A stretch of DNA of 55,425 nucleotides from a virus: positions 1 through 55,425 of the IMG/VR virus record IMGVR_UViG_3300047089_000323; one strand, given 5' to 3'. A program made the translations under genes and the position numbers. A model generated the notes under the pieces. That model saw only the letters and a list, made by a program, of their open reading frames with translations. It had not been told where the DNA came from and did not search any database. How positions within the stretch are numbered: position 1 is the stretch's first letter; each line of letters starts with the position of its first letter. Positions 1,133-48,194 of the stretch are shown here, one piece after another.

Positions 1133-1284
1133 TATCGTTTTCCTTTCTTCATGCGCTTGCCGCCGGAGCGGCGGGCGGTTTCGAGTGAAGCTGCTACCGC
1201 TTGTTTCTGTGGATAGCCTGAGTGCTTCATTTCGCGGATATTAGACGCGATGGTCTTTTTACTCGTTCCTTTTTTCAATGGCAT
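1132..1284 (-). CDS. Small basic phage protein (KGTSKKTI family)
   Basis: 50 residues beginning MPLKKGTSKKTIASNIREM and ending in a lysine/arginine tail (GGKRMKKGKR). The pattern KKGTSKKTIxxNIxEMxxSGxPQKQAVAxxLxxAR is one I know from many short phage and bacterial proteins of unknown function, commonly encoded near structural genes. Its strong positive charge suggests nucleic-acid contact, which is inference. TAATG overlap couples it to the next gene. Confidence 0.75.
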   Translation of the reverse strand: MPLKKGTSKKTIASNIREMKHSGYPQKQAVAASLETARRSGGKRMKKGKR

Positions 1285-1301
1285 GCGTCATCCTTTCCTG
1301 C

Positions 1302-4300
1302 TCACTGCGGCACCTGCTCACGTTCGCGTGGATCATAAACCCGTTCACGCGCGTATTTGGCCCGTTCTGTCTTGTCGTGCTGTTGCTTGGCTTTCCATTC
1401 TTTCTCGGTTTTTGCCTGCATCCAGTTATCGAGATGGACTGGATCCTGGATGTCGACGCCTGGAGCGCGGAAGCCAAGTGCAGTTTCCACGGGGCTGATG
1501 CCCGAGGTCTCGGGCTGTCCTTTGATCATGCTCCGGGCGCCGATCGGTCCCAACCGGCTGAACAGATGCGCCGCGCGCTGTTGCAGCTGCTCGAGCGGAT
1601 TAGCGCCGCGCTTTGTGATGGGATCGCCGCGCCAGTCTTCGTTGTTAATTTGCTCAAGTGCTGTCGTCGGCAAGCCGCCGAGCTTGGCGTAGCCCTCGCG
1701 CAGCGGATGTGTGAGCCAGCCATACACGTCCTTTTGGAAGCCTGGCATCAAGGCATGCTCCTTGACCTGGCCCTTGCCGCCGAGACCTGGGACGGTGCCG
1801 CCGGTGCGCGGGGCGTACAAGTCGCGCCAGTCTTGCGGGGCTTCGCCGGCTCTGAGGTACTGGTAGATGCCTGATATGGTTGAAACCACGAACGGAAAGG
1901 CAATGGCATAGGAAATGCGTGGATCAAATTCCGGGTGCGCCATGCTGAACCGGTTCTCACGGTTCTTGAGCGACAACGCTCCTGCTTTGCCGGCGGCGTA
2001 GGTGCCACCGGCTATTTCGCGCATGGCGCCTATCGTCCATGAGAACGAACGCATGGAGACCATTGCGGCCTGCCGGAGGCTCTGGTTCATGAACAGATTG
2101 TCGTGAATCATCTCGCCGAAGCGATTGTCGGTGCTGTCGACGATCTTCTTGGCGGCGTCCACCGCCGCCCGTCGCCCCTCCGGGGTGCTGATATCGACAT
2201 GTGGATTGGCTTTTAACCAGGCCTCCATTTGACTATGGACGGCGCCGGCCTTGAGCGCCGGAATATATTTGTCAAACAGCGGAGCGCCAACGGTCTGCAG
2301 AGCTCGGGACGCCTGTTTGAAGGGATACATGACCTGTTTGCCGACCGTGTCGGCAAGCCCCCAATCCTGCTTGATATCGTCCCACGCTTGTTTCAATTCG
2401 TAATTGATCTTGTCACGCGACATGCTTTTGATGAACGATCCGCGTGACACGTTTTCGTCACCGGCACTGCCAAGAATGTCGTAGGCATGCCCACGACCGA
2501 TCGGCCGTGCGTTGGCTTCGGCCATGATCGATGCAATCGGATTTGTACTATTCGGATTGAGATAGTCCTGCTGAAACCGTTTGCCTTCAATGTAGATGAT
2601 GCGGGGGGCGCGCGGCGCCTTGGCGATGGATAGAGCGCCCTCCTTGAACTGGCCGGAGAAGATCTGATTAAGGCCTTTGGCCACATCCGAAATGATCGCC
2701 TCGTTGGCCATGGTGAAAAAGTGATACGCGTTCAGCCCGAGCTCCATCTGGGTCCAGGCGGCATTCGAATTGCGCAAGGCATTATAGATGGGTTTGTGCA
2801 ATCCGCCCCCCATGCCCTGGTTGTAGAATGTGTTGTACTTGTCGGCAAAATCCTCTGGCGCATAGGCCTCCAGGAATGGTCCTTTTGGCGGAGCGTTGAG
2901 CTTCTTCCAGCCGGGAGGCGGGCCGCCAACCTGTTGCGGCTCAGGGGAACCAGTGGCGCCGACGGATTTCCCCGACCTGAAGTATCCAATCACTCCGGTC
3001 TCGACGCCACGCTCGAGCGCATCATTAGCCGCGATGAAATTTGTCATCGACAGGCCATAGCGCGTCGCAATTTCTACCGGATTGTCAGTAAGAGGTTCGA
3101 GTCCCGCGTCTTTGGCGTCCTCGTAAGTCGCATAAGTTCGCTTCTTGGTGCTGCCGGCGCCGCCGCGCCCACGGCCAAAGCTATTGAAAAACTCTGCTGC
3201 CTGGGCCGGATTTTTGTACATGTGCGCCGCATAGTCAGCGACGAACTTCATCTGTGCCGTACGATCGAGCTTGCTAAACTCAGTTTTCCATAAATCCATC
3301 GCGGGCTTGTGGTCGTCAATCAGCCGCTGCTGCTCAGGTGTCGGCTTCCAGTCCGGGAAATGATCGCCCCCCTCGATCCTGTTCATCATAGCTGCCCTAT
3401 CTTCTGCGTTCATGGGCAGAACAGTTTGTTGATGGGGATTGAGCAAATCGATGGTCTGCTCGAATACCCGTTTGGCTTTGCCGTAGGACCCGCGAATGAT
3501 GTGTTCCGCCTCCCGGCCGTGTGGCCCAATGTCGGACCCGACCAGCAGCTTCATCGACCGCCACAAATTGCTCAAGTTCGAGCGTTTCTGCGGCGGCGCA
3601 TAGGCCATGCTGGTCGGGCCAGGAGGCGGCGTTCCTCCCGCTGCGGCTGCCGCTTGGCCGACCGTGGGGGGCTTCGGCGGCTGACCGGCGCCCTCCTCCG
3701 GTCCCTGCCGCGCTTCCGCTTGCCGCAATGGCGGGACTGGCTCATCCGGTGCTCTTCCGGCCGCTACCTTGGCGGCGCCTCTTTCCAGGATCGCCTGCTC
3801 GGCGCCAATAGGGAGAGGTGCGGTTTCGATCGGCCGGCCGGAGCGTCCACGCACGATCGCTTGCCGCCGAATTGCATCAGGCTCCGCGGCGATCTGGTTG
3901 GCGCGCGCAGCCATCTCGCGGATGCGCGCAGATCGTGGCGTCACGGCATTGAGCTTCGTTTCGATTGATTGCTTGACAACATCAGCCGCCTTGCGGGTCT
4001 TGTAGCGCCCGCCGACTGGTTGGTCGGTATCGTTGCGCACCAGGTAAAATTCGCCGTTCTTATGTTGGAAACTGCTGACCGTGATCGGTTTGCGTGCGGG
4101 TGGCTCCGGTGCGGCAGGTTCCGGTTCTCGCGCTTGCTGCTGTCGGGCTTGCTCTTTGGCTTTGAGTTGTTCGCCGACGGTGGGCTTGGCCGCGGGCCTT
4201 CCCGCAAGCAGGTCACCTTGCAAATGGGTGTCCCCGAAAATCCCCTCGTCCATTGGACGTTGCGGTGCCGAAGGCCGAAGCCGTTCGTCGGTGCGCCGTT

Positions 4301-6395
4301 GCGCGAGTCGAGCATCGGAGATGCGTCCGGTGCCGGGAATTACGAGCTGGGGTTTGCCTTCTGCGCCTCTCTCTTCCGTGCCGCTCGCGCCAGCGCTGCG
4401 TGGGAGCGCGCCAGGTTCGCCCGCCACTGCGCCAGGTGAGGGTTGTCCGGGTCCGGCTTGGCGTAAACCGCCGCCATCTTCGCGTGCTGCTCCGACGTCA
4501 TGAGCATCCCATCCTGGGATGTCGCCGACGGTGTCTTGGCGTTCGCGCTTGCGGGCGGCTTGTTCATGGCGATCGGCATCTTCCATCACTGCTCGTTCGT
4601 AGGCAATATCCGGGTCGTTAACGCCTTCCCGCTCCATGATCTGTATGGTGCGGGCATGCAGCTTCGGGTCGATCTCGTTGAGCCCGGATTCCTCGACGAA
4701 ACCGTCGACGGCGCGTTCGATCGCCACGCGATTGAACTCAGCAGCGCGTTCACGCTCTGCTGCCGTGGTCGTGCCTTCATAGCCGATCTGGTATTGCTTG
4801 GTGCCGCGCGCTTCTTCCTCGATTAGCCGCAGGAGGTCGGGGACACCTGTTTTAGCCTCGCGGCCGGCACGATCGCTGGCGTCATTGATGTACGAAGCAT
4901 CGCGTGTCGCGGCTTCCCACGCGCTGTCCAGCGACTTGCCGGTTTTGCGGATCAGTCTGCCAAAGCCAGGGATGAAGGGATTGCCATCCAAGATGGTCTG
5001 CAATTCCGGCGATGGGCGGAGTCCGCCGCGAGAAGCAAGATATTCGAGCAGGCTATAGGTTCCGGGATCGCGCCCGCGCGGCCCGCGGTTTTTAACCGGG
5101 GCCACGACTTCAGGCGGTTCCTTCGGTAGCGGCTGCGCGGGGGCTGTTTGAGTTTCTGGCTCGGGCGGTGGCTCACCCCGCAACGGGCGCGCTTGCGCTT
5201 CGGCATTCGGTATCGCCGGAAATTCGGTCTCCAGCTTGCGGCCGTATTCGGTTGGCTCTTCGACTGGGGTCACCCGGGGCGGTTCAGGCGCAGGAGGTGC
5301 AACGTCGGCTTCCGGCGCCTCGGTCACTCTCGGCTTCAACTTTGCCTGCAGGGCGGCATCGAGTGTCGGATCGCTCACCCGCGGTGCTTCTGGCGGTGTC
5401 GCAGGAGCTGCAGCTTCCTCGCCCGGCGGCACCTGTGCTGTCGGCTCCTCCTTGGCATAGCGCTCGTCGACCCTCGGCTGCTGCTTGGCGGGATCCGTCG
5501 GTGGCGGGGCCCGCTCCTCGGCGGTGCCGGCGGCGGCTTGGGCGCCCGGTGTGCCGTGCGGCGCTACCCGTCCGGCCAGTGCCTCTCCGCGTTGCTCCAG
5601 CCCGCTCACCCAGCCGCGGTTGCCAGGGAGTGCCGCGCCGGCTACTGCGCTGGTCACCAATTGCGCGGGATCGAATTCGCCTTGGGCGAGCTGCGTGCCA
5701 CCTTCAACGCCGCCAGCGACCGCGCCCGAGAGCAGGCGCTGTCCGATCGGGGATTCCAGGAATTTGGCTCCGACGCGGGGGGCAGCAGCCGTGGGTGACA
5801 GACTCAAAGCATAAGGCACAACGGTTCCGGCGGCCGCCGACCATGGATTGGTTTTGGCATCGACTGCCTGCTGAATACTGTCGTCGTAACCTAAAAGTTC
5901 TTTGCCTGCGGAGACGATCTTCTCGCCCAAATAACCGCCAGCAATACCACCGCCGATCCACCCTGCGGCTGCGCCGGCTGGCCCGCCGAGCCAGCCCCCA
6001 GCACCACCGATGGCGCGGCCAGCGATGCCGCCCAGGATGCGCCCGGCCCCGCCCGCCACTGCGCCGGTGGCAAAGCCCGAGGTCGCTGGAATGACGGCAT
6101 CCCGCGCTTTGCGGGCGAAGGTCGCGAGCATGCCTTCGGCTTCCGGTTCATGCGGCCGGTAGCCTTCCCGTTCTGCGGTCGACTGATCCATGATCAGATG
6201 CGCCGGCGGCTTATCGTCCTCGGTCGGCAGGGGACGATAACCGCCGCGCTCCGCTGTCGGCTGATCCATGATCAGTTCGGGTGGTGGACCCGATGGTGGA
6301 CTGGAGTCGTAAGGATGATAACCGTCGCGCTCCGCCATCGACTGATCCATGATCAGTTCGGACGGTGGACCTTCCTCTTCATCGTCATCGGCCAC
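1302..6395 (-). CDS. Giant virion-associated protein, probable DNA-ejection protein
   Basis: 1697 residues, the largest gene in the window and near the end of the virion operon, where podoviruses place internal core/ejection proteins such as T7 gp16. The N-terminus carries three copies of a repeat of the form LIMDQxxAERxGYxP (residues about 14-28, 41-55 and 67-81). A Gly/Ala-rich stretch at about 100-155 (GGIAGRAIGGAGGWLGG) could insert into membranes. A Pro/Glu/Ala-rich disordered segment follows at about 280-450. The C-terminal third is globular with Trp/Tyr-rich helices. No peptidase or transglycosylase motif was identified. Large polyvalent phage proteins often look like this. The ejection role is inferred from size, composition and position. 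The start lies 5 bp after the upstream stop. Confidence 0.65.
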   Translation of the reverse strand: MADDDEEEGPPSELIMDQSMAERDGYHPYDSSPPSGPPPELIMDQPTAERGGYRPLPTEDDKPPAHLIMDQSTAEREGYRPHEPEAEGMLATFARKARDAVIPATSGFATGAVAGGAGRILGGIAGRAIGGAGGWLGGPAGAAAGWIGGGIAGGYLGEKIVSAGKELLGYDDSIQQAVDAKTNPWSAAAGTVVPYALSLSPTAAAPRVGAKFLESPIGQRLLSGAVAGGVEGGTQLAQGEFDPAQLVTSAVAGAALPGNRGWVSGLEQRGEALAGRVAPHGTPGAQAAAGTAEERAPPPTDPAKQQPRVDERYAKEEPTAQVPPGEEAAAPATPPEAPRVSDPTLDAALQAKLKPRVTEAPEADVAPPAPEPPRVTPVEEPTEYGRKLETEFPAIPNAEAQARPLRGEPPPEPETQTAPAQPLPKEPPEVVAPVKNRGPRGRDPGTYSLLEYLASRGGLRPSPELQTILDGNPFIPGFGRLIRKTGKSLDSAWEAATRDASYINDASDRAGREAKTGVPDLLRLIEEEARGTKQYQIGYEGTTTAAERERAAEFNRVAIERAVDGFVEESGLNEIDPKLHARTIQIMEREGVNDPDIAYERAVMEDADRHEQAARKRERQDTVGDIPGWDAHDVGAAREDGGGLRQAGPGQPSPGAVAGEPGALPRSAGASGTEERGAEGKPQLVIPGTGRISDARLAQRRTDERLRPSAPQRPMDEGIFGDTHLQGDLLAGRPAAKPTVGEQLKAKEQARQQQAREPEPAAPEPPARKPITVSSFQHKNGEFYLVRNDTDQPVGGRYKTRKAADVVKQSIETKLNAVTPRSARIREMAARANQIAAEPDAIRRQAIVRGRSGRPIETAPLPIGAEQAILERGAAKVAAGRAPDEPVPPLRQAEARQGPEEGAGQPPKPPTVGQAAAAAGGTPPPGPTSMAYAPPQKRSNLSNLWRSMKLLVGSDIGPHGREAEHIIRGSYGKAKRVFEQTIDLLNPHQQTVLPMNAEDRAAMMNRIEGGDHFPDWKPTPEQQRLIDDHKPAMDLWKTEFSKLDRTAQMKFVADYAAHMYKNPAQAAEFFNSFGRGRGGAGSTKKRTYATYEDAKDAGLEPLTDNPVEIATRYGLSMTNFIAANDALERGVETGVIGYFRSGKSVGATGSPEPQQVGGPPPGWKKLNAPPKGPFLEAYAPEDFADKYNTFYNQGMGGGLHKPIYNALRNSNAAWTQMELGLNAYHFFTMANEAIISDVAKGLNQIFSGQFKEGALSIAKAPRAPRIIYIEGKRFQQDYLNPNSTNPIASIMAEANARPIGRGHAYDILGSAGDENVSRGSFIKSMSRDKINYELKQAWDDIKQDWGLADTVGKQVMYPFKQASRALQTVGAPLFDKYIPALKAGAVHSQMEAWLKANPHVDISTPEGRRAAVDAAKKIVDSTDNRFGEMIHDNLFMNQSLRQAAMVSMRSFSWTIGAMREIAGGTYAAGKAGALSLKNRENRFSMAHPEFDPRISYAIAFPFVVSTISGIYQYLRAGEAPQDWRDLYAPRTGGTVPGLGGKGQVKEHALMPGFQKDVYGWLTHPLREGYAKLGGLPTTALEQINNEDWRGDPITKRGANPLEQLQQRAAHLFSRLGPIGARSMIKGQPETSGISPVETALGFRAPGVDIQDPVHLDNWMQAKTEKEWKAKQQHDKTERAKYARERVYDPREREQVPQ

Positions 6396-6399
6396 GGAT

Positions 6400-8982
6400 T
6401 CACTGTGCCAATCGTTTGATGTACTTCACGGTGCCGTTGGCATTAATGAAAGCTTGAAAGCCCGGATATTGTCGCACGGCTGGCGCCTGGCTTTGCGGCT
6501 GCGCGGCGGCCTGTACCGTCTGAGCGGCTGCGGGCTGTTGGGCTGCTTGCTGAATCGGCCCGCGCTGGAACACGCTTTCCGGCAGGGGCTGATCGGCACG
6601 ATTGTGCCAGCCCGGCCGCTCCCATGGCGCTGGACCGTATTCCTTCAGAGCTTGTGCGGCAGTTGCCTGTCGCCGGATCGCTTCAGCGTTCCAGGCTCCC
6701 GCGTTGACGACATCAGCCTCTTGCTGCCGCCGGTTCGCTTCCATTTGCGCTTGGTTGGATTGGGCCGGCATGCCGGGGATCGGATGCGGCGTTACCGAGG
6801 ACGAGGCGCTACCCTTGCCGATCGAACGTGAAGACCCCCAAGCCACCGATGGCGCAATACGAGGATCGGTGCTGACAAATTGAGTATTAGCGCGGACGAT
6901 AGCGGGTGAAACGGGTTCGGCGGCCTTCTGCAGCGCATGATAATCTTCCACCAGTTTCGCTCGACGTGCGCCCCATTCGGTCCTTTGTTCCCTAGTCGGT
7001 TGCGGACCCATATTCTCCGGTCCGACTAACGTAGTCAGGCGTTGCCGTTGGGCCGCCGATTCCGAATCCTGCGGCGTCAGTTGAGCGCGAGCCGCATCGA
7101 GTTGCCGCGGGGTCAATTTGTCGACGGGAGTCAGTCGATCGACCGGTGGCGGCGGCGGCAGTGGAGCCCCGGTTGCCGGTTGCCCGGATTGGTAGGGTGC
7201 GGCATCGGCGTTGATGTAACCGACCCGCGCCCCGGCCGGCAAAGTCGAACGGCTATCAGGGGCTGGTGGCGCTGCGGCTGCGGGTGGAGCTATTCGTAAG
7301 GCGGCTCGCGCCAATGCCGTCCGTCCGACATCGGATGTATTGGCGATATCATGGTCGCCGCTTTCAACCGCCCGGACGACGGCCTCACGGCCCGCCTGGG
7401 TATTGAGATAACCGGTCGGTAAAAATTTCTCCAGACCGGCGATTTGCGGTTCCATTCGCCGATAGGTGTCGGCAACGGATGCCGCCGGGGCATGCGGATC
7501 GGATAACAACTGCAAATCACGGGTAGCGTTGCCGCCGCCAGACGCAATCGTCAGGTTTTTACCGGTGCCGTTTTCGGCGATGTGATCGAACTGGCTCGCC
7601 GGTCCGGCCAGGAAACTATGCATCTGCGCCGGCGTCAGCGCAAATTTGGTAGGCTCGCCCCCACTATGCGGGGTCAGTGTTGCGACAAACAAATTGCGTG
7701 CGTGATCGAACCCGGTCGTCAAAGTCGTGTCGGTCGGCACGATGTTGTGCGAGTAGTCGATGGCCTTGAGCGTGGCGTCGGTAATCTGCCCCTTCTCCAC
7801 CGCCAGTGTCGCCAACGCTTGCGCTTTTTGCTGCGGCTCCCGCAATGCCTGCACGAACTGGTGCCCCGCTTCCATGCCGTGGTTCTTCACAGTGTCTTCG
7901 AAGGTCTGGCGGATGTTCTGGCTGTAGTCGTAAGTCGGGTTTGATTTTGCGGTTTCCGCCATGCGAGCGGTCAATTGTTCCGGCGACATGGCGTGCTCGC
8001 CGTTGAGATAATCCGCCAACTTGTTCTTCATCGTATCCCAGGCGCCGCCGGTCCAACTGTTGCCGGATACTTGCTGGTTATATTCACGCTGGGCGTCGAC
8101 ATCATGGTACGGCTTGGTGAGAGCCTGCCAGCCTTGTTGCAGGATATTGTCGCTGCCCGATACCGTCGGCGATTGTTGAGACGGCCTGGTGAGCCAGCCG
8201 GGCTTCAGGATAGTGTCGCGATCCGCTCCCGTCGGCGATTGATCGGTCTGCAGCCGGATACGGGGAGTGCCCGACTCTGAAATAACGGGAGCGTGTGGAT
8301 CCGGAGCAGGAGGGGCCGTTCCTCGATCGGCATCTCTGTTGTCATCGGTATTCGTTGCGGAAGCCGCAACCGGTGGAGTCTTGGCATCGGGTGGCGCTTC
8401 TTCGGCATTCGCTTGCGAAATTCCCAACAAGTTACGACCGTAATCCAGCACCTCGTGCAACAGATCCCGCTTGGGGGTCGGTTCTGCGCGGGTTGAATCC
8501 TGGAATCCAGTCGATGGTGTTGTTTCGGATGTGCCCGTGTCCGGCTGTTGGTATCCGGTTGGAGCTGCGACAGAATCAGTTCTGGCAACGACAGGAGCAG
8601 CCGGTTGGCTAGGCGCTTGGACTTCTGCTAGCTCGCGCTTGCGTTTACGTTTCTCTTCTGAATCACCACCGCTTCCACTATCTCCTCCATCTCCGCTATC
8701 TCCTCCATCTCCGCTATCTCCGCCACCATCTCCTCCACCACTGTCTTCAACATCACCTCCGTCGGCATAGCCGGTCCGTCGCACCGGACCACCTTGTGCA
8801 TAGTCCTGATCGCCTTTCAGCTTCAATGCGGACGCATACGATCCGGCGGTCCAGGCCGGCGTGGTCGAGGGGTAGACGGTGTCGTCATCGCTGGGACTGC
8901 GGTCGCGGGGTTCAACCGGGCCTCCCCGCGCATAACCGGTGTAGGCGTTGGGGGAGCGCTGCCGAGCGTGAGCCAAAGCCAT
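6400..8982 (-). CDS. Large internal virion protein, low-complexity N-terminus
   Basis: 860 residues from ATG 8982, chosen because it sits just after the TGA of the upstream gene (8984); the open frame further upstream is inside that gene. The N-terminus has two GGPV motifs (YARGGPVEP and YAQGGPVRR), also present in the upstream gene. A Gly/Asp/Ser run follows at about residues 85-120, encoded by a repeating TCTCCTCCATCTCCGCTA-type tract, then a basic KRKRKRE patch. The middle is globular and the C-terminus is Gln/Ala/Pro-rich. It lies between two other large proteins at the end of the virion operon, which suggests an internal core or ejection component. The family is not recognised. Confidence 0.6.
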   Translation of the reverse strand: MALAHARQRSPNAYTGYARGGPVEPRDRSPSDDDTVYPSTTPAWTAGSYASALKLKGDQDYAQGGPVRRTGYADGGDVEDSGGGDGGGDSGDGGDSGDGGDSGSGGDSEEKRKRKRELAEVQAPSQPAAPVVARTDSVAAPTGYQQPDTGTSETTPSTGFQDSTRAEPTPKRDLLHEVLDYGRNLLGISQANAEEAPPDAKTPPVAASATNTDDNRDADRGTAPPAPDPHAPVISESGTPRIRLQTDQSPTGADRDTILKPGWLTRPSQQSPTVSGSDNILQQGWQALTKPYHDVDAQREYNQQVSGNSWTGGAWDTMKNKLADYLNGEHAMSPEQLTARMAETAKSNPTYDYSQNIRQTFEDTVKNHGMEAGHQFVQALREPQQKAQALATLAVEKGQITDATLKAIDYSHNIVPTDTTLTTGFDHARNLFVATLTPHSGGEPTKFALTPAQMHSFLAGPASQFDHIAENGTGKNLTIASGGGNATRDLQLLSDPHAPAASVADTYRRMEPQIAGLEKFLPTGYLNTQAGREAVVRAVESGDHDIANTSDVGRTALARAALRIAPPAAAAPPAPDSRSTLPAGARVGYINADAAPYQSGQPATGAPLPPPPPVDRLTPVDKLTPRQLDAARAQLTPQDSESAAQRQRLTTLVGPENMGPQPTREQRTEWGARRAKLVEDYHALQKAAEPVSPAIVRANTQFVSTDPRIAPSVAWGSSRSIGKGSASSSVTPHPIPGMPAQSNQAQMEANRRQQEADVVNAGAWNAEAIRRQATAAQALKEYGPAPWERPGWHNRADQPLPESVFQRGPIQQAAQQPAAAQTVQAAAQPQSQAPAVRQYPGFQAFINANGTVKYIKRLAQ

Positions 8983-8983
8983 G

Positions 8984-10015
8984 TCATGCCGCTCCATAGC
9001 CGACGGAAGGAGCGCTGTTGCTACCGGCCATCGCACGATCTTTCCGAGATTTAGCCATCAATTCATAAAAGAATTTTTGGCCCTGCCAAGAGGCTACGTC
9101 TTTGGGGATAACGAACTCACCGGCATTCAGGCTGGCGTTCACGTCATCCGTCTGTGCGCCGCGCGAGGGGCTGAGTTCCGGAGGCACATCGCCGCCGGGC
9201 TGAAATTCGACTGGGCCACCGCGCGCCATGGTGAAGCCATATCCAGATCCGACATAGCGATTATTAGTGGCCGCGGGAGCGTTGGCGCCGGCGGCGCTGT
9301 TACTGAACCCTGAGCTCTCGCCGGTCGACTGGCCGGTGGATGAACCGGATGAGACGGTTCCCAGTGGCGAGTACGGCAGCGACATGCCGGTCTTGGCGAA
9401 GTCGTTGGCGGCATTGGTTGTCGCCACCCCCTGTCCGACATTCTGCAGGCTGCTGGAGATTGCCTGGTTCTGCATGGCGTTGCCTTGGGCAATATCGGCC
9501 ATGCGTTGTTGGTTGCCGGCTCCGGCGGCAGAGGCCCCGGTCATTACCCGGTTGGCCTGATCGAGTCCGGCATAGCGCCCGGCCGACGGGTCGATGCCGT
9601 AGCTTTGCAAATCCTGAATCGCTGCCTGCCGTCCAGCCTCGGCGCCTTGTTGCACACCGGCTTCCGCCTGCCCCACGTCGGTGGCGATGCGCTGCGGACT
9701 GGCATAGGACAGCGCGTTGCGCATCAGGGCATCGATATTGCCTTGGTTTTTATTGAATTGGTCCATGCCCCATTGGTAAACTTGGGGCGCCATGCTGGCG
9801 GAATATTTGGCGATCTGCTCGAGGATCGGGGTCTGCGAATAATCCGGGATGTAGGAATTGGACTGTTGTTGGCTCTGCTGGGTCGACTGTTGCGCTGATT
9901 GGTTGACGGAGGTGGCGGCCTTGCCGCCCGGCGACATGTACATCATGGTCGCCGCATCGGCCATTTGCGGCGACTGAAAACCAAAACCTTGACCAACCGA
10001 CGGAGCGTACACCAT
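8984..10015 (-). CDS. Internal virion protein with GGPV / FVIPKDVA motif
   Basis: 343 residues from ATG 10015 (MVYAPSVGQGF). A TTG at 10051 is an alternative start but lacks a ribosome site. It is Gln/Ala/Ser-rich with a likely helical middle. The C-terminus has MARGGPVEF, then GEFVIPKDVASWQGQKFF. I know the latter pattern (GEFVIPxDVxxxxGxxFF) from podophage structural proteins in the position of T7 gp14-like proteins, so an internal virion or injection role is plausible. A CtrA-type box and a weak terminator lie upstream. Confidence 0.6.
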   Translation of the reverse strand: MVYAPSVGQGFGFQSPQMADAATMMYMSPGGKAATSVNQSAQQSTQQSQQQSNSYIPDYSQTPILEQIAKYSASMAPQVYQWGMDQFNKNQGNIDALMRNALSYASPQRIATDVGQAEAGVQQGAEAGRQAAIQDLQSYGIDPSAGRYAGLDQANRVMTGASAAGAGNQQRMADIAQGNAMQNQAISSSLQNVGQGVATTNAANDFAKTGMSLPYSPLGTVSSGSSTGQSTGESSGFSNSAAGANAPAATNNRYVGSGYGFTMARGGPVEFQPGGDVPPELSPSRGAQTDDVNASLNAGEFVIPKDVASWQGQKFFYELMAKSRKDRAMAGSNSAPSVGYGAA

Positions 10016-10063
10016 TTTAAGTGCGGTCCCGAAATGGCACAGATGAAGCAAAGAGCAGGGGGC

Positions 10064-20187: not shown

Positions 20188-20450
20188 GGGGTGTCTTCGA
20201 GCTTACGCAGTCGATCCTGCACGCCGACCATCCAACGGTGGATCGCCTGCAATTCGGTTAGGACGTCGGTCAGCGTGTGATCGACCCGCATGGCCAGGGA
20301 CGAGGACACCCGCATGTCGTCGTTCAATCGCTGCACGTCGCGTTGCAGGACGGTGATGCCTTTGGCAAGCACCGGAATGCCTTCCACCAAAGGAAGTATG
20401 GCGTCGAGCTTGCGATTGATGGCGTCGAGATCGACCGGGGTGTCAGGCAT
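20184..20450 (-). CDS. Small coiled-coil protein
   Basis: 88 residues, helical throughout, with heptad hydrophobics (LDAINRKLDAILPLVEGIPVL...ITVLQRDVQRLNDDM). It resembles in style the two coiled-coil proteins at 38072-38703, and GIPVLAKGITVL is close to SGIPLMATTL in the first of them, so they may be distant paralogues. Its start overlaps the end of the GIY-YIG gene by 8 bp. Function unknown. Confidence 0.55.
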   Translation of the reverse strand: MPDTPVDLDAINRKLDAILPLVEGIPVLAKGITVLQRDVQRLNDDMRVSSSLAMRVDHTLTDVLTELQAIHRWMVGVQDRLRKLEDTP

Positions 20451-21291
20451 GGGCGGTTCTCTTAGGTCGTCCGATTTGTTTTTTTGAGGAACGTAAAAAT
20501 CCGCAATAACGACAGCCCTGCCCCCGATACATTAGTCTTTGGACTGTGGGTGTTCCCGTATAATCGTGCTTCGAACAATACACCGTCACACGCCCATCCA
20601 CGGCTCCTGGCTTGCTAGGTGGTCCAATCTCCTGGCATTCCCAGCCAAGTTCTTTGGTTTTGGCGCGGATGTTTTCAGGCGTATTTTTACGACCACGCCG
20701 ATCCCAAATCTGATTTGTTATTTCACTCTGACGCTTTCCCGCTCCGGGTTTACTCCAACGCACCGTGCGTGCGGTTTCACCGTTGTCGATTCCTTTCATC
20801 TTTGCTGATTGCTCAGCGCGTTTCTCAGATGTCCATGCCTTACGCATGGAATTTACCCGCTCCGCTTTTTTTACTGGATCGGCCCAATTCGCCTTGGACC
20901 CTTCGGCGATACGCGCGATTTGTGCTGCACGTAGATCAGGGTTAGCGGCAAGATACTGTCTTACAGATACGGAATGCGCAGCACGCTCTTCTTTGGTTTT
21001 TCGCAGTCCTTTATTCGTATCGGCGCGAAGCCGAATATTGTAGCGAGGTTTGAGGAAATCTATCCAAAATTGTTCACGTGCTTCGAGAAGCTCCGGAGAG
21101 CACTCTTCAAGAATGCCAGACGTGAATCCTACGCCGTCGTATTTTGCCCACGCTTGCGAAAGCCGCAAGGAATGGTGGCGCTTCTTACGAAGGTGGGAAA
21201 AATGAACCCGCTGCCGCAGTTCGATCTTTTCTGAAGATCCAACATACAGTTTGCCACTGGGGCTTTTGATGAAATAGATGCCACACGTCAT
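20443..21291 (-). CDS. GIY-YIG homing endonuclease
   Basis: 282 residues. The N-terminal GIY-YIG nuclease domain (residues about 1-100) shows GIYFIKSPSGKLYVGSS, so the second motif is YVG, with a following helix containing R and H and a later E (EAREQFWIDFLKPRYNI). The middle has repeated basic NUMOD-like DNA-binding segments, and the C-terminus ends in a CxxC...CxxCG zinc-ribbon-like element (CSKHDYTG, CRYCG). It starts 80 bp after the coat-protein stop, so it is a free-standing gene next to intron 2 rather than inside it. It probably promotes homing of the intron or of its own region. Confidence 0.85.
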   Translation of the reverse strand: MTCGIYFIKSPSGKLYVGSSEKIELRQRVHFSHLRKKRHHSLRLSQAWAKYDGVGFTSGILEECSPELLEAREQFWIDFLKPRYNIRLRADTNKGLRKTKEERAAHSVSVRQYLAANPDLRAAQIARIAEGSKANWADPVKKAERVNSMRKAWTSEKRAEQSAKMKGIDNGETARTVRWSKPGAGKRQSEITNQIWDRRGRKNTPENIRAKTKELGWECQEIGPPSKPGAVDGRVTVYCSKHDYTGTPTVQRLMYRGQGCRYCGFLRSSKKQIGRPKRTAHA

Positions 21292-21370: not shown

Positions 21371-22819
21371 TCAGCCAGAAATCACTTGACTTTGGACGAG
21401 CGCGGTCCCGTCGACTACCTGGTATCCGTAGACTTGTACCGAATGTTATCTAGCCGGCTCTTTATCCGGCCTTCTGCAAATTTCTTTGCAGCGCAGACTA
21501 TATCTTCCTGCTTGCGCAGGCTCCGCGCTCGTGGGCCGTTCATCCGGTCTGGATTACTAGACCTAGTCGTTGAACCTTCTTCCTGTTCCCAGGAAGCTTG
21601 GCTGCTGATTACCCAATCCGAAATGTTTTCCAACCATCGCATCTGTCGTTACCAACTACGCTGTGGTCACTTCGGCTCTCAGGGCGTTCCAGCAATTCAC
21701 GGAGTTTAACGAGAGCCTTAATGTAGAGTTGTCGACCCTCGCAGGATTTGGCCGAATGTTAGTTCGGATCTGAGCGTCTCCAATTTTGAAATCTGACTGG
21801 CAAAAGTGATCCCGTGAGCATGGCCAGCGAAGATCGGCTGCTCGCCGGCCGCGAAGTTAGTCGAGTCCGACGTGTTCGAGGGCAGCAGGTTGCTGATATA
21901 CAAAGTGAACCTGTCCACCATTCCGAGCCTGCCATTGCGCAGCATCGATACCGAATCGCCGGACAAGTAAGCCTGCCGCAGTTCCGACTGCTTGAGCATG
22001 CGTCCCGCCCACGATGGCATGACGATCCAGCGTCCAACCTCTGGGATGTTGGTCTCATCGAGACACTGGCCCATGCGCAGGATCAGGTCGATCAGGTTGA
22101 CCTGTCCTGTCGTTGCGCCCTGCCCGACCACCGTGACCGGCGTGCCTTTGACGCCCAGGTTCAAGTTGGCCGAGATCGCACCGGCGGTCGCTCCTTTATT
22201 TGCGGCGTTGGCTTGGCCGACGATGCCGCCGAGCACGTCCTTGTCGACGGTGATCTTGAGCTGCTGGGCAGCATCATCACTCCACATGCTCAGGATGTTC
22301 AGATCAGACTGCACCTCCATGACGTCATCGAGGATCAGGCTGAAATACTTTCCGTTGCCGATAAACAACTCGACAGAACCGCCAGTTGGCCGGTCGAGTC
22401 CGAGAAGGCCATCGGCCTTGTAGTCACGGATCGTGATCGAAGGCTTCGTGCGAATTCGCACACGATCGCCCATGTTTTGGATTTCCAATTTCTTCGCCGA
22501 TAGGGCTCTTTATCCCTACCTTCCTGCAAGTTTCCTTGCAGATGAGACTATCTCATCACCCTTTGCGGGGCCGGGCGCTCGTGGGCGGCTTATCGTTTCC
22601 TCACCGCCTAGTCGTTGAACCTTCCATCGCCCTGGGGCTCTCGCCTTACATCGATGGCTTGGCTGCTGATTGTCTCCGCCACACTCGGTCAGAGGTCCCA
22701 GCAATTCACCCGGTTTAACGAAGGCTAATCCGTCAACCCTCGTAGTCGGTATTGCTGATCGCGCTGAGCACTGTCGAAGCGTAAAATTTCTCGATCAGTT
22801 TCGCTGACCAGATCTCCAT
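21371..22819 (-). CDS. Major capsid protein, split by two group I introns
   Basis: Spliced CDS is complement(join(21371..21438, 21735..22485, 22736..22819)): 84 + 751 + 68 nt, giving 300 residues and a stop. Exon 1 encodes a start (MEIWSAKLIEKFYAS) ending NTDYEG. Exon 2 continues EIQNMGDRVRIRT and ends QILRG. Exon 3 restores LQVYGYQVVDGTALVQSQ before TGA. Each junction gives the sequence expected of T7/P22-like HK97-fold coat proteins (NTDYEGEI...GDxVxIRT; RGLxVYGYxVV). Unspliced, the frame stops within 4 nt of exon 1 (in-frame TGA at 22732-22734) and at 21718. It lies after the scaffold gene, as expected. The protein would form the icosahedral head. Confidence 0.88.
21439..21734 (-). ncRNA. 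Group I intron 2 in the capsid gene
   Basis: 296 nt without an internal gene. Canonical core elements are visible on the minus strand: P (GAATTGCTGG), Q (AATCAGCAGCCAAGC), R (GTTCAACGACTAG) and S (GAAGATATAGTC), with ACTA/TAGT pairing for P7. P1 is a perfect match: exon end CGAGGGU pairs with internal guide GCUCUCG, putting the conserved U.G pair at the splice site. The intron ends in G (21439). Joining gives T+TA (Leu) and an intact reading frame. The GIY-YIG gene lies directly after exon 3. Confidence 0.88.
22486..22735 (-). ncRNA. Group I intron 1 in the capsid gene
   Basis: 250 nt without an internal gene. Core: P (GAATTGCTGGGA), Q (AATCAGCAGCCAAGCC), R (GTTCAACGACTAG), S (GATGAGATAGTC). 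P1: exon end ACGAGGGU pairs with GCCUUCGU, ending in U.G. The last intron base is G (22486). Joining creates Gly-Glu at a codon boundary and restores NTDYEG-EIQNMG. It is clearly related to intron 2: the P, Q, R and S blocks are nearly identical, and so is the 3' segment with TGCA stem and GGATAAAGAGCC. Confidence 0.88.
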
Positions 22820-30458: not shown

Positions 30459-30842
30459 CTACTTGTGATGATGAAGAATAGCTTCGACGATGTCGGACTT
30501 GGTCCAGCTATGATTGACGTCGACGCCTTCCGCCTCTGCTTCCGATATCAATTCCTCTTTCGTCATCTCATTGAGCTGTGCCCGGGTTGCCCGGGCCCCG
30601 CGAGCCGCGCCGCTGGCCCCGGTGGTGCCGGTCGTGCCGGTCGTGCCGGTCGTGCCGGTGGTTCCGGTCGTGCCGGTGGCGCCACCGCCGGTCGGCCCTT
30701 CCTGCACCTGCATGACGTCGAACTCCTCGCCCGGCGCGGCCATGGCCGTGATCTGCGCGATCGCCTCTTCGCGGGTTTCGGCCTCGACGGTCCCGGTGAG
30801 GACTTCGGAGGTCTTGCGGCCCTTGTAGCTGAACGTCGGCAT
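30459..30842 (-). CDS. GTT-repeat linker protein with Rho-N/SAP-like end
   Basis: 127 residues. The N-terminal beta domain (MPTFSYKGRKTSEVLTGTVE) is joined by seven Gly-Thr-Thr-type triplets (GTTGTTGTTG..., about residues 60-80, a short collagen-like stalk) to a C-terminal helical domain. That domain, LNEMTKEELISEAEAEG then SWTKSDIVEAILHH, matches the helix-extended-loop-helix of Rho N-terminal/SAP-like domains, which can bind nucleic acid. Position next to the portal gene suggests a head protein. Confidence 0.6.
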   Translation of the reverse strand: MPTFSYKGRKTSEVLTGTVEAETREEAIAQITAMAAPGEEFDVMQVQEGPTGGGATGTTGTTGTTGTTGTTGTTGASGAARGARATRAQLNEMTKEELISEAEAEGVDVNHSWTKSDIVEAILHHHK

Positions 30843-40283: not shown

Positions 40284-41189
40284 TCAAGCCGCGATCGCCT
40301 GCGCGGCCGGCGCCGCGGCTAGTTCCGGCTCGGCCAGTGCCAGGCCGCGCAGATAATCCGCCGCGGCTTGCGCTTTGCTGCACGCGGTGAAGAACGCCCG
40401 CTTGTCGGATTTCAGCAATCCGATCCAGGTCGCGATGTAACCGGCATTGCGCACATCACCGTCAAAGCCGAACTCGGCGGACAGGAACGCGGCCCCGAGC
40501 TCGGCGATCAGTTCTTCCGCGGCATAAGCCCGCTTGCCGAAGCGGCCGCTTAGATCGCGGTCGAGCCGCGGCTTGTGCCCAGTCCAATGCGTCAGTTCGT
40601 GAAACGCCACGTTGTAGAAATGATCGGCGCCCTTGAACGCGGCAAAGGCCGGCATCGAGATGAAGTCGCCCCCCGGCGCGAAGTAAGCTTCGCCATTGCC
40701 TTCGCGGAAATCGGCTCCCGTCGTGGCGATGAACTCATCGGCGAGGCTGTCGCGCGTATCGGGATTGCGCACCCGCATCGGCTTGCCGACCTGGACGCCA
40801 TCGGGAAGCCCGTCGCATTGCGCCACGTTGAACACGGTGTATTCGCGCAGCATGGGAATGATCTTGCCGTCTTCGTCCGCCGGCGCGTTCTTGTCCTTAA
40901 TGTGCAGCTGCTTCACGAAGTAAACCTTGGTCCCATGCTCGCCCTTGCGCACGTTGCCGCCGGCATCGAGCGCCTGCTTGAAGGTGACAAAGCGTGGAGT
41001 TGGCCAGCCGCGTTCGCGCGCCAGCCACAGCAGAATCACGTTGCAGCCGGAATAGGGACGATTGGTCACCGCGTTGCACGGCGTGTTCTGGCCGGCAGTC
41101 GCGGACCATGGCTTGACCCAGGGCAGCGCGCCGCGCTCGAGCTCCTGCAGAATGCGGGCGGAAACTTCAGTGTAAATGTCGCGCTTCAT
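40284..41189 (-). CDS. ArdC-type anti-restriction protein
   Basis: 301 residues from ATG 41189 (AACGAAAGGT upstream). N-terminal ssDNA-binding domain (about 1-125): DIYTEVSARILQELERGALP, WVKPW, RPYSGCNVILLW, and RKGEHGTKVYFVK. C-terminal zincin-like metallopeptidase domain with HELTHWTGH (197-205) and a following EELIAELGAAF that supplies the third ligand. The ArdC family protects incoming DNA from type I restriction. Its transcript is preceded by a hammerhead ribozyme and a CGACAA-loop hairpin. Confidence 0.85.
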   Translation of the reverse strand: MKRDIYTEVSARILQELERGALPWVKPWSATAGQNTPCNAVTNRPYSGCNVILLWLARERGWPTPRFVTFKQALDAGGNVRKGEHGTKVYFVKQLHIKDKNAPADEDGKIIPMLREYTVFNVAQCDGLPDGVQVGKPMRVRNPDTRDSLADEFIATTGADFREGNGEAYFAPGGDFISMPAFAAFKGADHFYNVAFHELTHWTGHKPRLDRDLSGRFGKRAYAAEELIAELGAAFLSAEFGFDGDVRNAGYIATWIGLLKSDKRAFFTACSKAQAAADYLRGLALAEPELAAAPAAQAIAA

Positions 41190-41248: not shown

Positions 41249-41305
41249 GGACTCATCAGGCACCGCGTCACGGTGCGACCACGCCACGAAGGCGCGGTTT
41301 CGTCC
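41249..41305 (-). ncRNA. Type II hammerhead ribozyme
   Basis: 57 nt on the minus strand: GGAC (stem II, 41305-41302), GAAA, stem III CCGCGCC-TTCGT-GGCGTGG with the A15.1-U16.1 pair, then the cleavage triplet GTC (cut between 41277 and 41276), stem I GCACCG-TGACG-CGGTGC, core CTGATGA (41259-41253), and GTCC closing stem II. All catalytic-core bases are canonical (CUGAUGA, GAAA, GUC), stems I and III are fully paired, and order defines the type II permutation. It fills the gap between the stop at 41312 and the ArdC start, so it should cut the polycistronic mRNA there. Confidence 0.88.
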
Positions 41306-41311
41306 TGTCTG

Positions 41312-41680
41312 TCAGGCCGGCCGCCAGCCCTTTGCCTTCGTGTACTTTTCCCACCGGCCATTGCGCCATTGGGTTTCAACGCGGCATTTCGGAGGGGCGA
41401 TAGACGTTTGTTCCAAGATGATCGCCTTGGTCGCGCCGCCTTGCGGCAGATCGCCGGCCAACGAATTGCCCTGCCCTAGGTAACAGGACACGCGGCCATC
41501 CGTGCACGTCGCAGGCATGCCGATCGCCTCATCGATACGGCAATAGGAGTAGCCACTAGTGCGAACGCGTTCCATTTCCCACACATGCCGAATGCGAATC
41601 GGTTCGGCATAGTGAGTCGAGATCGATTCAAACCCGTATTTACCGGGAGATAGAAGAATGATCGTGCCGTGCAGTGCCAT
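41312..41680 (-). CDS. Hypothetical accessory protein
   Basis: 122 residues. Starts with a beta region (MALHGTIILLSPGKYGFESI, then HYAEPIRIRHVWEME) and contains three Cys (SYCRID, ATCTDG, SCYLGQ). C-terminus WRNGRWEKYTKAKGWRPA. No family recognised. Ribosome site AACGAAAGGTAAACG and a CGACAA-loop hairpin lie upstream. Confidence 0.55.
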   Translation of the reverse strand: MALHGTIILLSPGKYGFESISTHYAEPIRIRHVWEMERVRTSGYSYCRIDEAIGMPATCTDGRVSCYLGQGNSLAGDLPQGGATKAIILEQTSIAPPKCRVETQWRNGRWEKYTKAKGWRPA

Positions 41681-43168: not shown

Positions 43169-43513
43169 TTATAGGCCCACGGCCTGAAAAGCGCCCCTGT
43201 ATGGCTCCCTGCTAGCGCGCATGGCCTTGCAGGCGTCCTCGGGGAACCACTCGGATAGCGCCAGCAGCGCCGGATGATCGGGATGGCCGGAATAGTGCAG
43301 CACCGCGTCACGCGTACGACAAAAGTACTGACCGTTCCACCGGATGGCACTGACTCGCCTCTGCACGATCCACTGAATGCCGGCGACGCACTCGATCACA
43401 CGGAAACCGTCACCGAAATCGACGACGAGGTAGGGATAATCATTCGCGCTCTCACTAAGCCGCTGCGCGCGAGACTTTGGTAACGATTTATCGGCATTGT
43501 CGTTGATGGGCAT
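43169..43513 (-). CDS. Hypothetical protein
   Basis: 114 residues with a good ribosome site (GAGG, 8 bp upstream). Central beta-rich part: YPYLVVDFGDGFRVIECVAG, WIVQRRVSAIRWNGQYFC. C-terminal helix EWFPEDACKAMRAS. No family recognised; lies in the replication-side operon. Confidence 0.6.
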   Translation of the reverse strand: MPINDNADKSLPKSRAQRLSESANDYPYLVVDFGDGFRVIECVAGIQWIVQRRVSAIRWNGQYFCRTRDAVLHYSGHPDHPALLALSEWFPEDACKAMRASREPYRGAFQAVGL

Positions 43514-43562
43514 AGCGACCTCCTCACAGGTTGCGGTGTCAAGTGGCGGGCTGGTGACGCAA

Positions 43563-43835
43563 TCACCGGCCCGCTGCGCATTCTAGCGGGGCTGGTGGGG
43601 GTTTGCGAGGTGGTTGGGCGCTGCGGCAGTGATTGTTTGCGGGCGATTCGTGCTGGTGGCGGGAGCTCGCGTTGTGCGGCGCCGGCTGCACGCAGGGGCA
43701 CTCGCATAGCCATGTCATGAGGATGGCCCATTGGCCGTGCGGGGTTCCTTCGAGCGTATCGGCGATGGTCCATCCGAGCCGGGCGTAATCGAGCGCGCGG
43801 GCGTGCGGGACGTAGCGGAACAGGCGGTTCGTCAC
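43563..43835 (-). CDS. Small hypothetical protein (LGWTIADTLEGTPHG)
   Basis: 90 residues. The core YARLGWTIADTLEGTPHGQW then AILMTWLCECP matches a short pattern (LGW.vaddLaGT.HG.ya.LM.W.C) that I know from rhizobial phages and genomic islands; function unknown. C-terminal half is polar and probably disordered. Confidence 0.55.
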   Translation of the reverse strand: MTNRLFRYVPHARALDYARLGWTIADTLEGTPHGQWAILMTWLCECPCVQPAPHNASSRHQHESPANNHCRSAQPPRKPPPAPLECAAGR

Positions 43836-46270: not shown

Positions 46271-46495
46271 TCATTTGTTCAGTTCGCCGTTCCGCATCAG
46301 GGTGCGGTATTCTTCGACAGCGCGGTCGTGCTCGGCCCAGGCCGCCGGCGGGATCAAGTGATAGCCGCCGAAGCGCCGCACCAGTTCCTGCAGGTCGGGC
46401 GGGTGGATGTGCAGCCCGGTGACTTCCTTCGCCGGCTCGGCCAGCTTGCGCCAGCGCCGCGTGAACAGGTCGCGTTGCCGCACAACGGCATTCAT
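46271..46495 (-). CDS. Small protein sharing an N-terminal module with the VRR-NUC gene
   Basis: 74 residues. RDLFTRRWRKLAEPAKEVTG then LHIHPP is nearly the same as the start of the protein at 54277-54717 (HLFTNRWRKLVEPQKEVTSL). The nuclease part is absent here; the remainder is helical (AAWAEHDRAVEEYRTLMRNG). The module may be an interaction tag shared by two replication proteins. Confidence 0.6.
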   Translation of the reverse strand: MNAVVRQRDLFTRRWRKLAEPAKEVTGLHIHPPDLQELVRRFGGYHLIPPAAWAEHDRAVEEYRTLMRNGELNK

Positions 46496-47967
46496 TCGGC
46501 GGCCTCGCCCCAGAGGTCGCCCTGCGCACGCGGCAGCGGCGGCAAGTCTGGCATCTCTTGAATTAGCTTCATTCCGGCATGCTGCGGATCAGTGACACCA
46601 ATGAGGTTCGGCTTCTGATAGACCTTGCAACCGGCAGCGCGTGCTTGCTCGGTCAGCCGCGCTACCCATTCAAATGGTGGCGCAAATTCGGCCACTCGAC
46701 CTATTTCCGGCTGCTCAGTGGCGCTTTGCGAGCCAATCACGACGAAATCAAACATCGATAAATCGGTGAATTCGAGCGGCGCCAAAAGCGGCTCTAGCGA
46801 CAGCCACTTCACCCTCACACCACTGATCTTGCGGAATGCCTCCTCGGCAATCTTCACGCGATACTGCTCATCGATTGTGGTACCTATCCACGCGGTTGAT
46901 GGTAAGTCGAGCCCAACATACCGCTGCGGAAATTTGGTAAGAAACAGGTATTCCCAATTAGGGCTCTTATGAGCCGCCGCGAAAACCCTTTCGATCCATT
47001 CTTGCGGCACCCATTTGCCGAATAGGTCGCCCATAGAAGTAACAAACACGCGCCCGAGCCGTGCGTCGTTAACGACTTCCTCTGGCACTTTGCTGTTGGC
47101 GGGAGCCTCCAAACGGTAATCGTAAAAAGTCGGCGTGAAGCCAAATGGATAGAACGGGCGAAGGTTCTCGTTCAGCACCGCGCCTTCGCGCGCATAGCAG
47201 TATTGGCAATTATGCAGGCAGCCGGTGACGGGATTCCAGGTGAATGCCGCCCACGAGACTTGATCATTGGTGGCGTTAAATTTTGCCTTGCCTTTCGGCA
47301 GTTGATATTCCTTCTGCTGACCATCGTGTGTGTAAACGGTGGTTGTAGTCCGGCTCGACGATGTCTCTTTCTCTGCGACGACTTGCGAGGCGGCTTCGGC
47401 TTTCCGTACTTGCTTGTGGGCGTCGTTCAGGCTGAGCTTGCCGGCGGCGACATCAGCAGCAAGCGCGGGTGATGCCGCCTTGACCTTCTTCGCCTTGCTG
47501 ATGGTGCCATGCGCGACACCGGCCGCCTTTCCGACTTGGCGATTAACTCGGCCGGCCGATTTCACTCGGCCCACTTTTGGGCCAAGTGATTTCTGCCCCG
47601 GTGCAGTCTTGCCATGTTCCCGCTGCCGCGCCTTCGCCTCCGCTTCCAGATATGGCGCAATCGCCAGGCCGATCATTGCCTTCTGCCCAGCCGACAGATC
47701 GCGCCGGCGCATGTTCGCGCTAATGATGAAGTTGATGATGTCCAGCTCGGTAGTCGACTTTGGCAGATTCCGGAATTTAGGTTCCACTCCCGCTTCCTTG
47801 CACGCCTTGTGGCGATTAATACCGTCGACGATCGTTGTGCCGTCCGGCGTCAGCACGATCGGTTGATGTAGCCCGTTGCTGTTGATATCCGCGGCCAGCA
47901 ATTGGAATTCGGCGTCATCGATTGGCGGGAATAGGGCTGCAACCGGGTGTATTTTTAATTTAATCAT
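46492..47967 (-). CDS. ParB-like domain fused to Gp37/Gp68 radical-SAM-like domain
   Basis: 491 residues from ATG 47967. N-terminal ParB/Srx-like domain (about 5-95; IVLTPDGTTIVDGINRHKAC with the GxNRxxA box), an HTH region at about 140-190 (VNRQVGKAAGVAHGTISKAK), then the DUF5131/phage Gp37-Gp68 domain. The latter carries the three-Cys motif C250-x3-C254-x2-C257 (GCLHNCQYCYA) used by radical SAM enzymes to hold a 4Fe-4S cluster. Its neighbour resembles TcmP, the known genomic partner of three-Cys-motif proteins. Substrate unknown; DNA or nucleotide modification is a guess from the ParB part. Confidence 0.75.
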   Translation of the reverse strand: MIKLKIHPVAALFPPIDDAEFQLLAADINSNGLHQPIVLTPDGTTIVDGINRHKACKEAGVEPKFRNLPKSTTELDIINFIISANMRRRDLSAGQKAMIGLAIAPYLEAEAKARQREHGKTAPGQKSLGPKVGRVKSAGRVNRQVGKAAGVAHGTISKAKKVKAASPALAADVAAGKLSLNDAHKQVRKAEAASQVVAEKETSSSRTTTTVYTHDGQQKEYQLPKGKAKFNATNDQVSWAAFTWNPVTGCLHNCQYCYAREGAVLNENLRPFYPFGFTPTFYDYRLEAPANSKVPEEVVNDARLGRVFVTSMGDLFGKWVPQEWIERVFAAAHKSPNWEYLFLTKFPQRYVGLDLPSTAWIGTTIDEQYRVKIAEEAFRKISGVRVKWLSLEPLLAPLEFTDLSMFDFVVIGSQSATEQPEIGRVAEFAPPFEWVARLTEQARAAGCKVYQKPNLIGVTDPQHAGMKLIQEMPDLPPLPRAQGDLWGEAAE

Positions 47968-48194
47968 TTTCCATGCTCCTTGCAGTGGCAGGCATGACAG
48001 ATCGGTTTTAGTTGCGATGGCACGTCGAACATTCCCCACCGTGGATGGCCGTTCCAGTGATGGACTTCGGTCGCCAGCGCGCCGCATTGACACTTCCCGC
48101 CCGCGCGCCGCATCGCGACAGCACGCGCTGCGCGATAAACCGGATGCTGAAGATAGGCATCATAATTTTCATACCGCGCGGTCCAGGAAGTCAC
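47964..48194 (-). CDS. Small HNH endonuclease
   Basis: 76 residues. KCQCGALATEVHHWNGHPRW has the HH of the HNH beta-hairpin and a Cys pair; LKPICHACHCKEHG supplies the N/H helix with CHxCH. Stop overlaps the downstream ATG (ATGA). Compact size fits a free nuclease acting with the neighbouring ParB/radical-SAM protein or in packaging. Confidence 0.7.
   Translation of the reverse strand: MTSWTARYENYDAYLQHPVYRAARAVAMRRAGGKCQCGALATEVHHWNGHPRWGMFDVPSQLKPICHACHCKEHGK

What the first reader, a model, noticed from the sequence alone, without database searches (positions are those of the whole stretch)
41249..41305. Intact type II hammerhead ribozyme between two phage genes
A 57-nt stretch on the minus strand contains every conserved hammerhead base (CUGAUGA, GAAA, GUC) with fully paired stems I and III and a 4-bp open stem II. 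Type II is the rare permutation, known mostly from bacteria and phages. Its place, starting 7 nt after one stop codon and 60 nt before the ArdC start, implies programmed cleavage of a polycistronic mRNA to separate the anti-restriction gene from upstream genes.
Basis: partly seen in the sequence, partly recalled or inferred. Interest (0 to 1): 0.85.

Follow-up and report, generated by a model that had tools for sequence, protein, structure and literature searches.

The report
Phage hammerhead ribozyme between two genes
The stretch is very probably a genuine self-cutting RNA (a type II hammerhead ribozyme) that cuts a phage messenger RNA between two neighbouring genes; such ribozymes have been known in phages since 2011, but this one belongs to a large, pseudoknot-free subgroup that the standard Rfam cut-off almost entirely overlooks.

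Summary
Observation confirmed: window 41249-41305 (-) has every hammerhead core base, 7-bp stem III, 6-7-bp stem I and an open 4-bp stem II. Rfam's type II model scores 29.7 bits (cut-off 37). A model built from 45 other phage hammerheads, this one left out, gives 61.1 bits, E 7e-17, and nothing else convincing in the 55-kb record. A search fixing only the core and three stem II pairs found 134 distinct viral sequences; 93% also form stems I and III, against 0.4% of shuffles. They sit between genes: 109 of 137 start within 15 nt of an upstream stop codon (6% at random). This ribozyme lacks the usual pseudoknot; its class has a conserved loop I U and A's flanking stem II instead, and 39 of 40 strong copies in 13 phage loci fall below Rfam's cut-off. 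Best explanation: self-cutting of a polycistronic mRNA, leaving a hairpin at both new ends. The ArdC link is weak: ArdC homologues elsewhere lack an adjacent ribozyme and following genes vary, though related ribozymes precede ArdA in two relatives. Perreault et al. 2011 (PMC3088659) already described type II hammerheads flanking prophage genes, including ardA. New member of a known kind; cleavage itself untested.

The parts
41249..41305 (-). Type II hammerhead ribozyme, pseudoknot-free short-stem-I subgroup
41302..41305 (-). stem II, 5' strand GGAC (pairs with 41249-41252 GUCC); flanked by conserved A 41306
41298..41301 (-). core GAAA (last A pairs with U 41278)
41279..41297 (-). stem III hairpin CCGCGCC-UUCGU-GGCGUGG; remains at the 3' end of the upstream product
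   Evidence: -15.1 kcal/mol alone
41277..41278 (-). U16.1 C17 of the GUC cleavage triplet; predicted cut between 41277 and 41276
   Evidence: plus the general hammerhead rule; cleavage not assayed
41260..41276 (-). stem I hairpin GCACC-GUGACGC-GGUGC with the GUNANGC-type loop; would be the first nucleotides of the downstream product
41253..41259 (-). core CUGAUGA
41249..41252 (-). stem II, 3' strand GUCC; followed by conserved A 41248
41312..41680 (-). upstream gene, 122 aa, no Pfam or PHROG family; homologues at 57-60% identity, so a real gene; stop TGA 41312-41314
40284..41189 (-). downstream gene ArdC (ArdcN + MPTase-PolyVal), 301 aa, ATG at 41189; 87-nt leader after the predicted cut

Best explanation
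A cis-acting type II hammerhead ribozyme in a minus-strand run of genes of a tailed phage. Once transcribed, the 57-nt element folds and cuts itself once after C41277. Because type II keeps stems I and III closed and the cut lies between them, both products keep a hairpin: the upstream mRNA ends with stem III (2',3'-cyclic phosphate), and the ArdC mRNA begins with stem I and a 5'-OH. This splits the polycistronic transcript into separately turned-over messages. Shown here: sequence, structure, base-pair covariation in the class, placement right after stop codons and before start codons, conservation of the core with drifting stem III in relatives. Inferred: cleavage, its timing, protection of the new ends, and the effect on ArdC level. 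No dedicated link to anti-restriction is needed.
For: Model R1 61.1 bits, E 7e-17 with the window left out of training. Core-only pattern: 134 distinct viral matches, 93% fold both other stems, shuffles 0.4%; the same pattern in 257 Gb of bacterial and archaeal genomes gives only 51 stretches, 29% of which fold, so the element is mainly viral. Covariation in 45 copies: 12 of 14 pairs change on both sides, 196 cells, slid controls 15-63 (rows were chosen for having stems). Placement: stop codon within -5..15 nt upstream for 109/137 (random 43/685, antisense 18/137); start codon with a ribosome-binding-like site 0-60 nt downstream for 88/137 (antisense 5/137), peak 19-28 nt. Relatives: 31 nt of stem I + core identical in 7 contigs, at different junctions, while stem III differs, including a C-G to U-A double change in L194. 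Published: arrays cut in vitro and one in E. coli (PMC3088659).
Against: No cleavage data here. The usual loop I-tail pseudoknot is absent, so speed at low Mg2+ rests on an inferred tertiary contact. No transcript data show that the upstream gene and ArdC share an mRNA (one search finds no promoter-like site between them, a weak argument). ArdC homologues elsewhere do without a ribozyme, so it is not essential for ArdC.
Confidence: 0.72

Rival explanations
1. The ribozyme is a leader trimmer (insulator) for the downstream gene: what matters is a fixed hairpin-capped 5' end and an exposed ribosome-binding site for ArdC, not the separation from the upstream message.
For: Downstream start codons lie at a narrow distance (peak 19-28 nt) in the class; stem I begins exactly at the cut. 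The published halovirus HHphage sits 13 nt before a helicase start and matches a mapped 5' end (PMC3088659).
Against: The tightest constraint is to the upstream stop codon (80% within 15 nt), which a pure leader trimmer does not need. In the window the start codon is 59 nt away, further than usual.
Confidence: 0.2
2. The ribozymes are small passenger or border elements of exchangeable gene cassettes, spread between junctions by recombination at their conserved core and tolerated because they fall between genes.
For: The same 31 nt of stem I + core occur at junctions with different neighbours in related phages; the window's upstream gene is followed by ribozyme + ArdC here, but by ArdA without a ribozyme in L198, where a ribozyme precedes the gene instead; ArdC in L193 has ribozymes only downstream.
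Against: Paired, varying stems and an unbroken core in more than 120 diverse phage copies show selection for a working ribozyme; passengers would decay.
Confidence: 0.06
3. Chance resemblance: hairpins between genes that happen to contain hammerhead letters.
For: Rfam score below the gathering cut-off; in a whole-window, all-family search E is only 0.049.
Against: E 7e-17 with the subgroup model; conserved core in seven related contigs; 93% versus 0.4% folding of core-only matches.
Confidence: 0.02

Closest known systems
Type II hammerhead ribozymes of prophages (Perreault et al. 2011, PMC3088659)
   Same: Same core, same permutation (open stem II), between genes of phage operons, in published cases next to the anti-restriction gene ardA
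   Different: Published consensus has a loop I-tail pseudoknot (in a majority of copies); this one has none; next gene is ArdC, not ArdA; single copy in the 55-kb record
Rfam RF02276 Hammerhead_II
   Same: End-to-end match of all 66 model positions, 29.7 bits
   Different: Below the gathering score of 37; shorter stem I loop, no pseudoknot tail; 39 of 40 strong copies of this subgroup in 13 loci also fail the cut-off
HHphage of haloviruses HF1/HF2 (described in PMC3088659)
   Same: Hammerhead just upstream of an early phage gene, with a mapped 5' end near the cut
   Different: Described there as a structural variant in archaeal viruses; not compared by sequence here

Membership tests
Hammerhead ribozyme, type II permutation (structural class) | Core CUGANGA, GAAA and N-U-H at the cut site | tested here: met
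   CUGAUGA, GAAA, GUC
Hammerhead ribozyme, type II permutation (structural class) | Three helices around the core, stems I and III closed, stem II open | tested here: met
   fold of the 57-mer, all pairs present
Hammerhead ribozyme, type II permutation (structural class) | Core kept and stems covarying in relatives | tested here: met
Hammerhead ribozyme, type II permutation (structural class) | Self-cleavage after C17 giving 2',3'-cyclic phosphate and 5'-OH | not testable with these tools
   needs in vitro transcription
Rfam RF02276 as thresholded | Score at or above 37 bits (a curator's cut-off, not a structural feature) | tested here: not met
   29.7 bits
Pseudoknotted type II subgroup | At least 4 pairs between loop I and the tail 3' of stem II | tested here: not met
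   none found; long-loop class 31/35 versus 18 shuffled, short class 11/127 versus 19 shuffled
Ribozyme dedicated to anti-restriction genes | Regular adjacency of such ribozymes to ArdC or ArdA | tested here: inconclusive
   ArdC 1 of 96 junctions; none in ArdC loci L122-L135; ArdA in L194 and L197 yes, L199-L203 no

The most novel reading that the evidence does not exclude
Pseudoknot-free type II hammerheads with a GUNANGC-type loop I are a major, largely uncatalogued system of punctuation in phage operons: placed at gene junctions against the stop codon, turning a polycistronic transcript into hairpin-ended shorter messages and at the same time marking the borders of exchangeable cassettes such as ArdA/ArdC.
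Probability: 0.3. Interest if true: 0.62.

Novelty: new member of a known kind. Interest (0 to 1): 0.38.

Why it matters
The single ribozyme is ordinary for phages. That makes a 15-year-old suggestion, ribozyme-based segmentation of phage messages, testable on many phages, and gives a better model for finding them.

Tried and rejected
Nucleotide search of the phage collection with the region or the 66-mer found nothing beyond 18-nt chance matches. Relaxed hammerhead search over the whole window: no second copy; model R1's second hit at 30742-30785 (11.1 bits, E 0.37) lacks the CUGAUGA core and was rejected. A pseudoknot between loop I and the tail was looked for and not found. Enrichment of anti-restriction genes after ribozymes: not seen in the 96 downstream genes. 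Homology of the window's upstream gene to the L120 upstream gene, suggested by a rough alignment value, was rejected. Folding of a longer 86-nt stretch was not more stable than shuffles (z -0.43), so fold energy alone is weak evidence; only the exact 57-mer stands out. Scans of public contigs were capped, so counts are lower bounds and are limited to stem II cores GAC/GUC.

Full report
What is there. On the minus strand, 41305 to 41249 reads GGAC GAAA CCGCGCC UUCGU GGCGUGG U C | GCACCG UGACG CGGUGC CUGAUGA GUCC. Every core base of a hammerhead is present. Stem II is open (4 bp), stems III and I are closed. The cut is expected between 41277 and 41276. The upstream gene (122 aa; homologues at 57-60% identity) ends 6 nt before the element; the ArdC ATG lies 59 nt after it. 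The 57-mer folds into exactly this structure at -28.9 kcal/mol, with 2 of 200 shuffles as stable.

Is it more than chance. Rfam's type II model aligns over its full length but scores 29.7 bits against a cut-off of 37. To test this without leaning on that model, viral contigs were searched for a pattern fixing only GACGAAAC, GUC and CUGAUGAGUC with free spacers. Of 134 distinct matches, 93% also form stems I and III of at least 4 bp, against 0.4% when the spacers are shuffled. The same pattern in 257 Gb of bacterial and archaeal genomes gave 51 stretches, of which 29% fold. A covariance model from 45 of the viral copies, the window and the copies sharing its stem I left out, finds the window element at 61.1 bits, E 7e-17.

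Which subgroup. The copies fall into two classes. A long-stem-I class (35 copies) has the known loop I-tail pseudoknot in 31, against 18 expected from shuffled tails. A short class (127 copies, stem I of 16-18 nt) has no excess of pseudoknots (11 against 19) but a loop I U in 122, an A before stem II in 117 and an A after it in 98. The A before stem II is partly explained by stop codons (TAG, TAA, TGA) abutting or overlapping it, so its invariance is not pure tertiary-contact evidence. The window element is of the short class and has all three bases. By analogy with the loop contacts discussed in PMC3088659 these probably stand in for the pseudoknot; that is inference. In 13 loci the new model finds 60 copies, 40 of them strong (at least 52 bits); Rfam's cut-off accepts 15 hammerheads, only one of which is among those 40.

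Where such elements sit. Of 137 distinct viral copies with enough flank, 109 begin between 5 nt inside and 15 nt after a stop codon that closes an open frame of at least 70 codons (random positions 43 of 685; antisense 18 of 137). A start codon with a purine-rich site follows within 60 nt in 88 (antisense 5), most often at 19-28 nt. These are simple open-frame counts, not gene annotation. The following genes are diverse: DUF932 in 5, AAA_5 in 3, ArdC in 1 of 96. So the element serves junctions in general.

Relatives of this phage. L106 is the same phage at 99.95%. The 31 nt of stem I + core are identical in L101, L120 and L192-L195, which share other genes with the window, but at different junctions. 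In L193 an ArdC homologue has no ribozyme before it; two ribozymes follow it at later junctions. In L194 the ribozyme, with a C-G to U-A double change in stem III and a weaker stem II, stands about 27 nt before ArdA (Pfam PF07275, E 4e-26). In L197 ArdA has a ribozyme on each side. In L198 a homologue of the window's upstream gene is followed by ArdA without a ribozyme, and a ribozyme stands before that gene instead. Genes and ribozymes are thus shuffled as modules.

How it most likely works. The transcript cuts itself after C41277. Because the cut lies between the two closed hairpins of a type II element, the upstream message ends in stem III (-15.1 kcal/mol alone) and the ArdC message begins with stem I and no unpaired 5' base. 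Hairpins at both ends, a 5'-OH and a cyclic phosphate would be expected to slow decay by end-dependent ribonucleases (general knowledge; not shown). The stop codon's closeness means a ribosome finishing the upstream gene covers part of the element, so cutting may depend on translation; this is speculation.

What was known. Perreault et al. 2011 (PMC3088659) described natural type II hammerheads, as common in bacteria as the other types, often several per prophage flanking genes or short blocks, proposed that they process long phage transcripts, showed cleavage of three arrays in vitro and one in E. coli, and noted ardA beside them in Agrobacterium and Legionella. No later paper on the phage function was found in the library searched, which lacks most subscription journals.

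Verdict. Real and almost certainly a hammerhead; interpretation as message segmentation is the best available and partly published; the anti-restriction emphasis is not supported as a rule. New member of a known kind, with a useful side result on a poorly covered subgroup.

Noticed in passing
window 22524-22753 (-) and 21474-21799 (-): Two group I introns (72.6 and 72.5 bits), on either side of an open frame (21724-22476, -) that matches Phage_capsid_4; a GIY-YIG homing-endonuclease-like frame lies at 20449-21291 (-). Apparently two introns in the capsid gene.
   Followed up: partly
window 43478-43583: About 100 bp conserved (77-79%) in L097, L120 and L197, overlapping the start of the 114-aa frame 43169-43513 (-); sub-threshold Rfam resemblance on the + strand to FinP (33.6 bits) and PtaRNA1 (28.2 bits).
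   Followed up: partly
L110 (IMGVR_UViG_2974780946_000001), 1137-10062: At least 13 type II hammerheads, mostly of the long-loop class, on one strand of a 12-kb stretch: a very dense array, good for testing.
   Followed up: no
L197 1899-1954 and L198 1432-1487: Hammerheads with CUGACGA instead of CUGAUGA, allowed by the consensus CUGANGA; missed by the strict pattern, so the counts here are lower bounds.
   Followed up: no
L142 (Phycicoccus jejuensis) and L149 (Streptomyces iakyrus): Three hammerheads with the same spacing in draft genomes of two unrelated actinobacteria; shared prophage or assembly contamination.
   Followed up: no
window 46492-48093 (-): 533-aa frame whose C-terminal part matches DUF5131 with weak Radical SAM similarity; the N-terminal part looks ParB-like by eye.
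   Followed up: no
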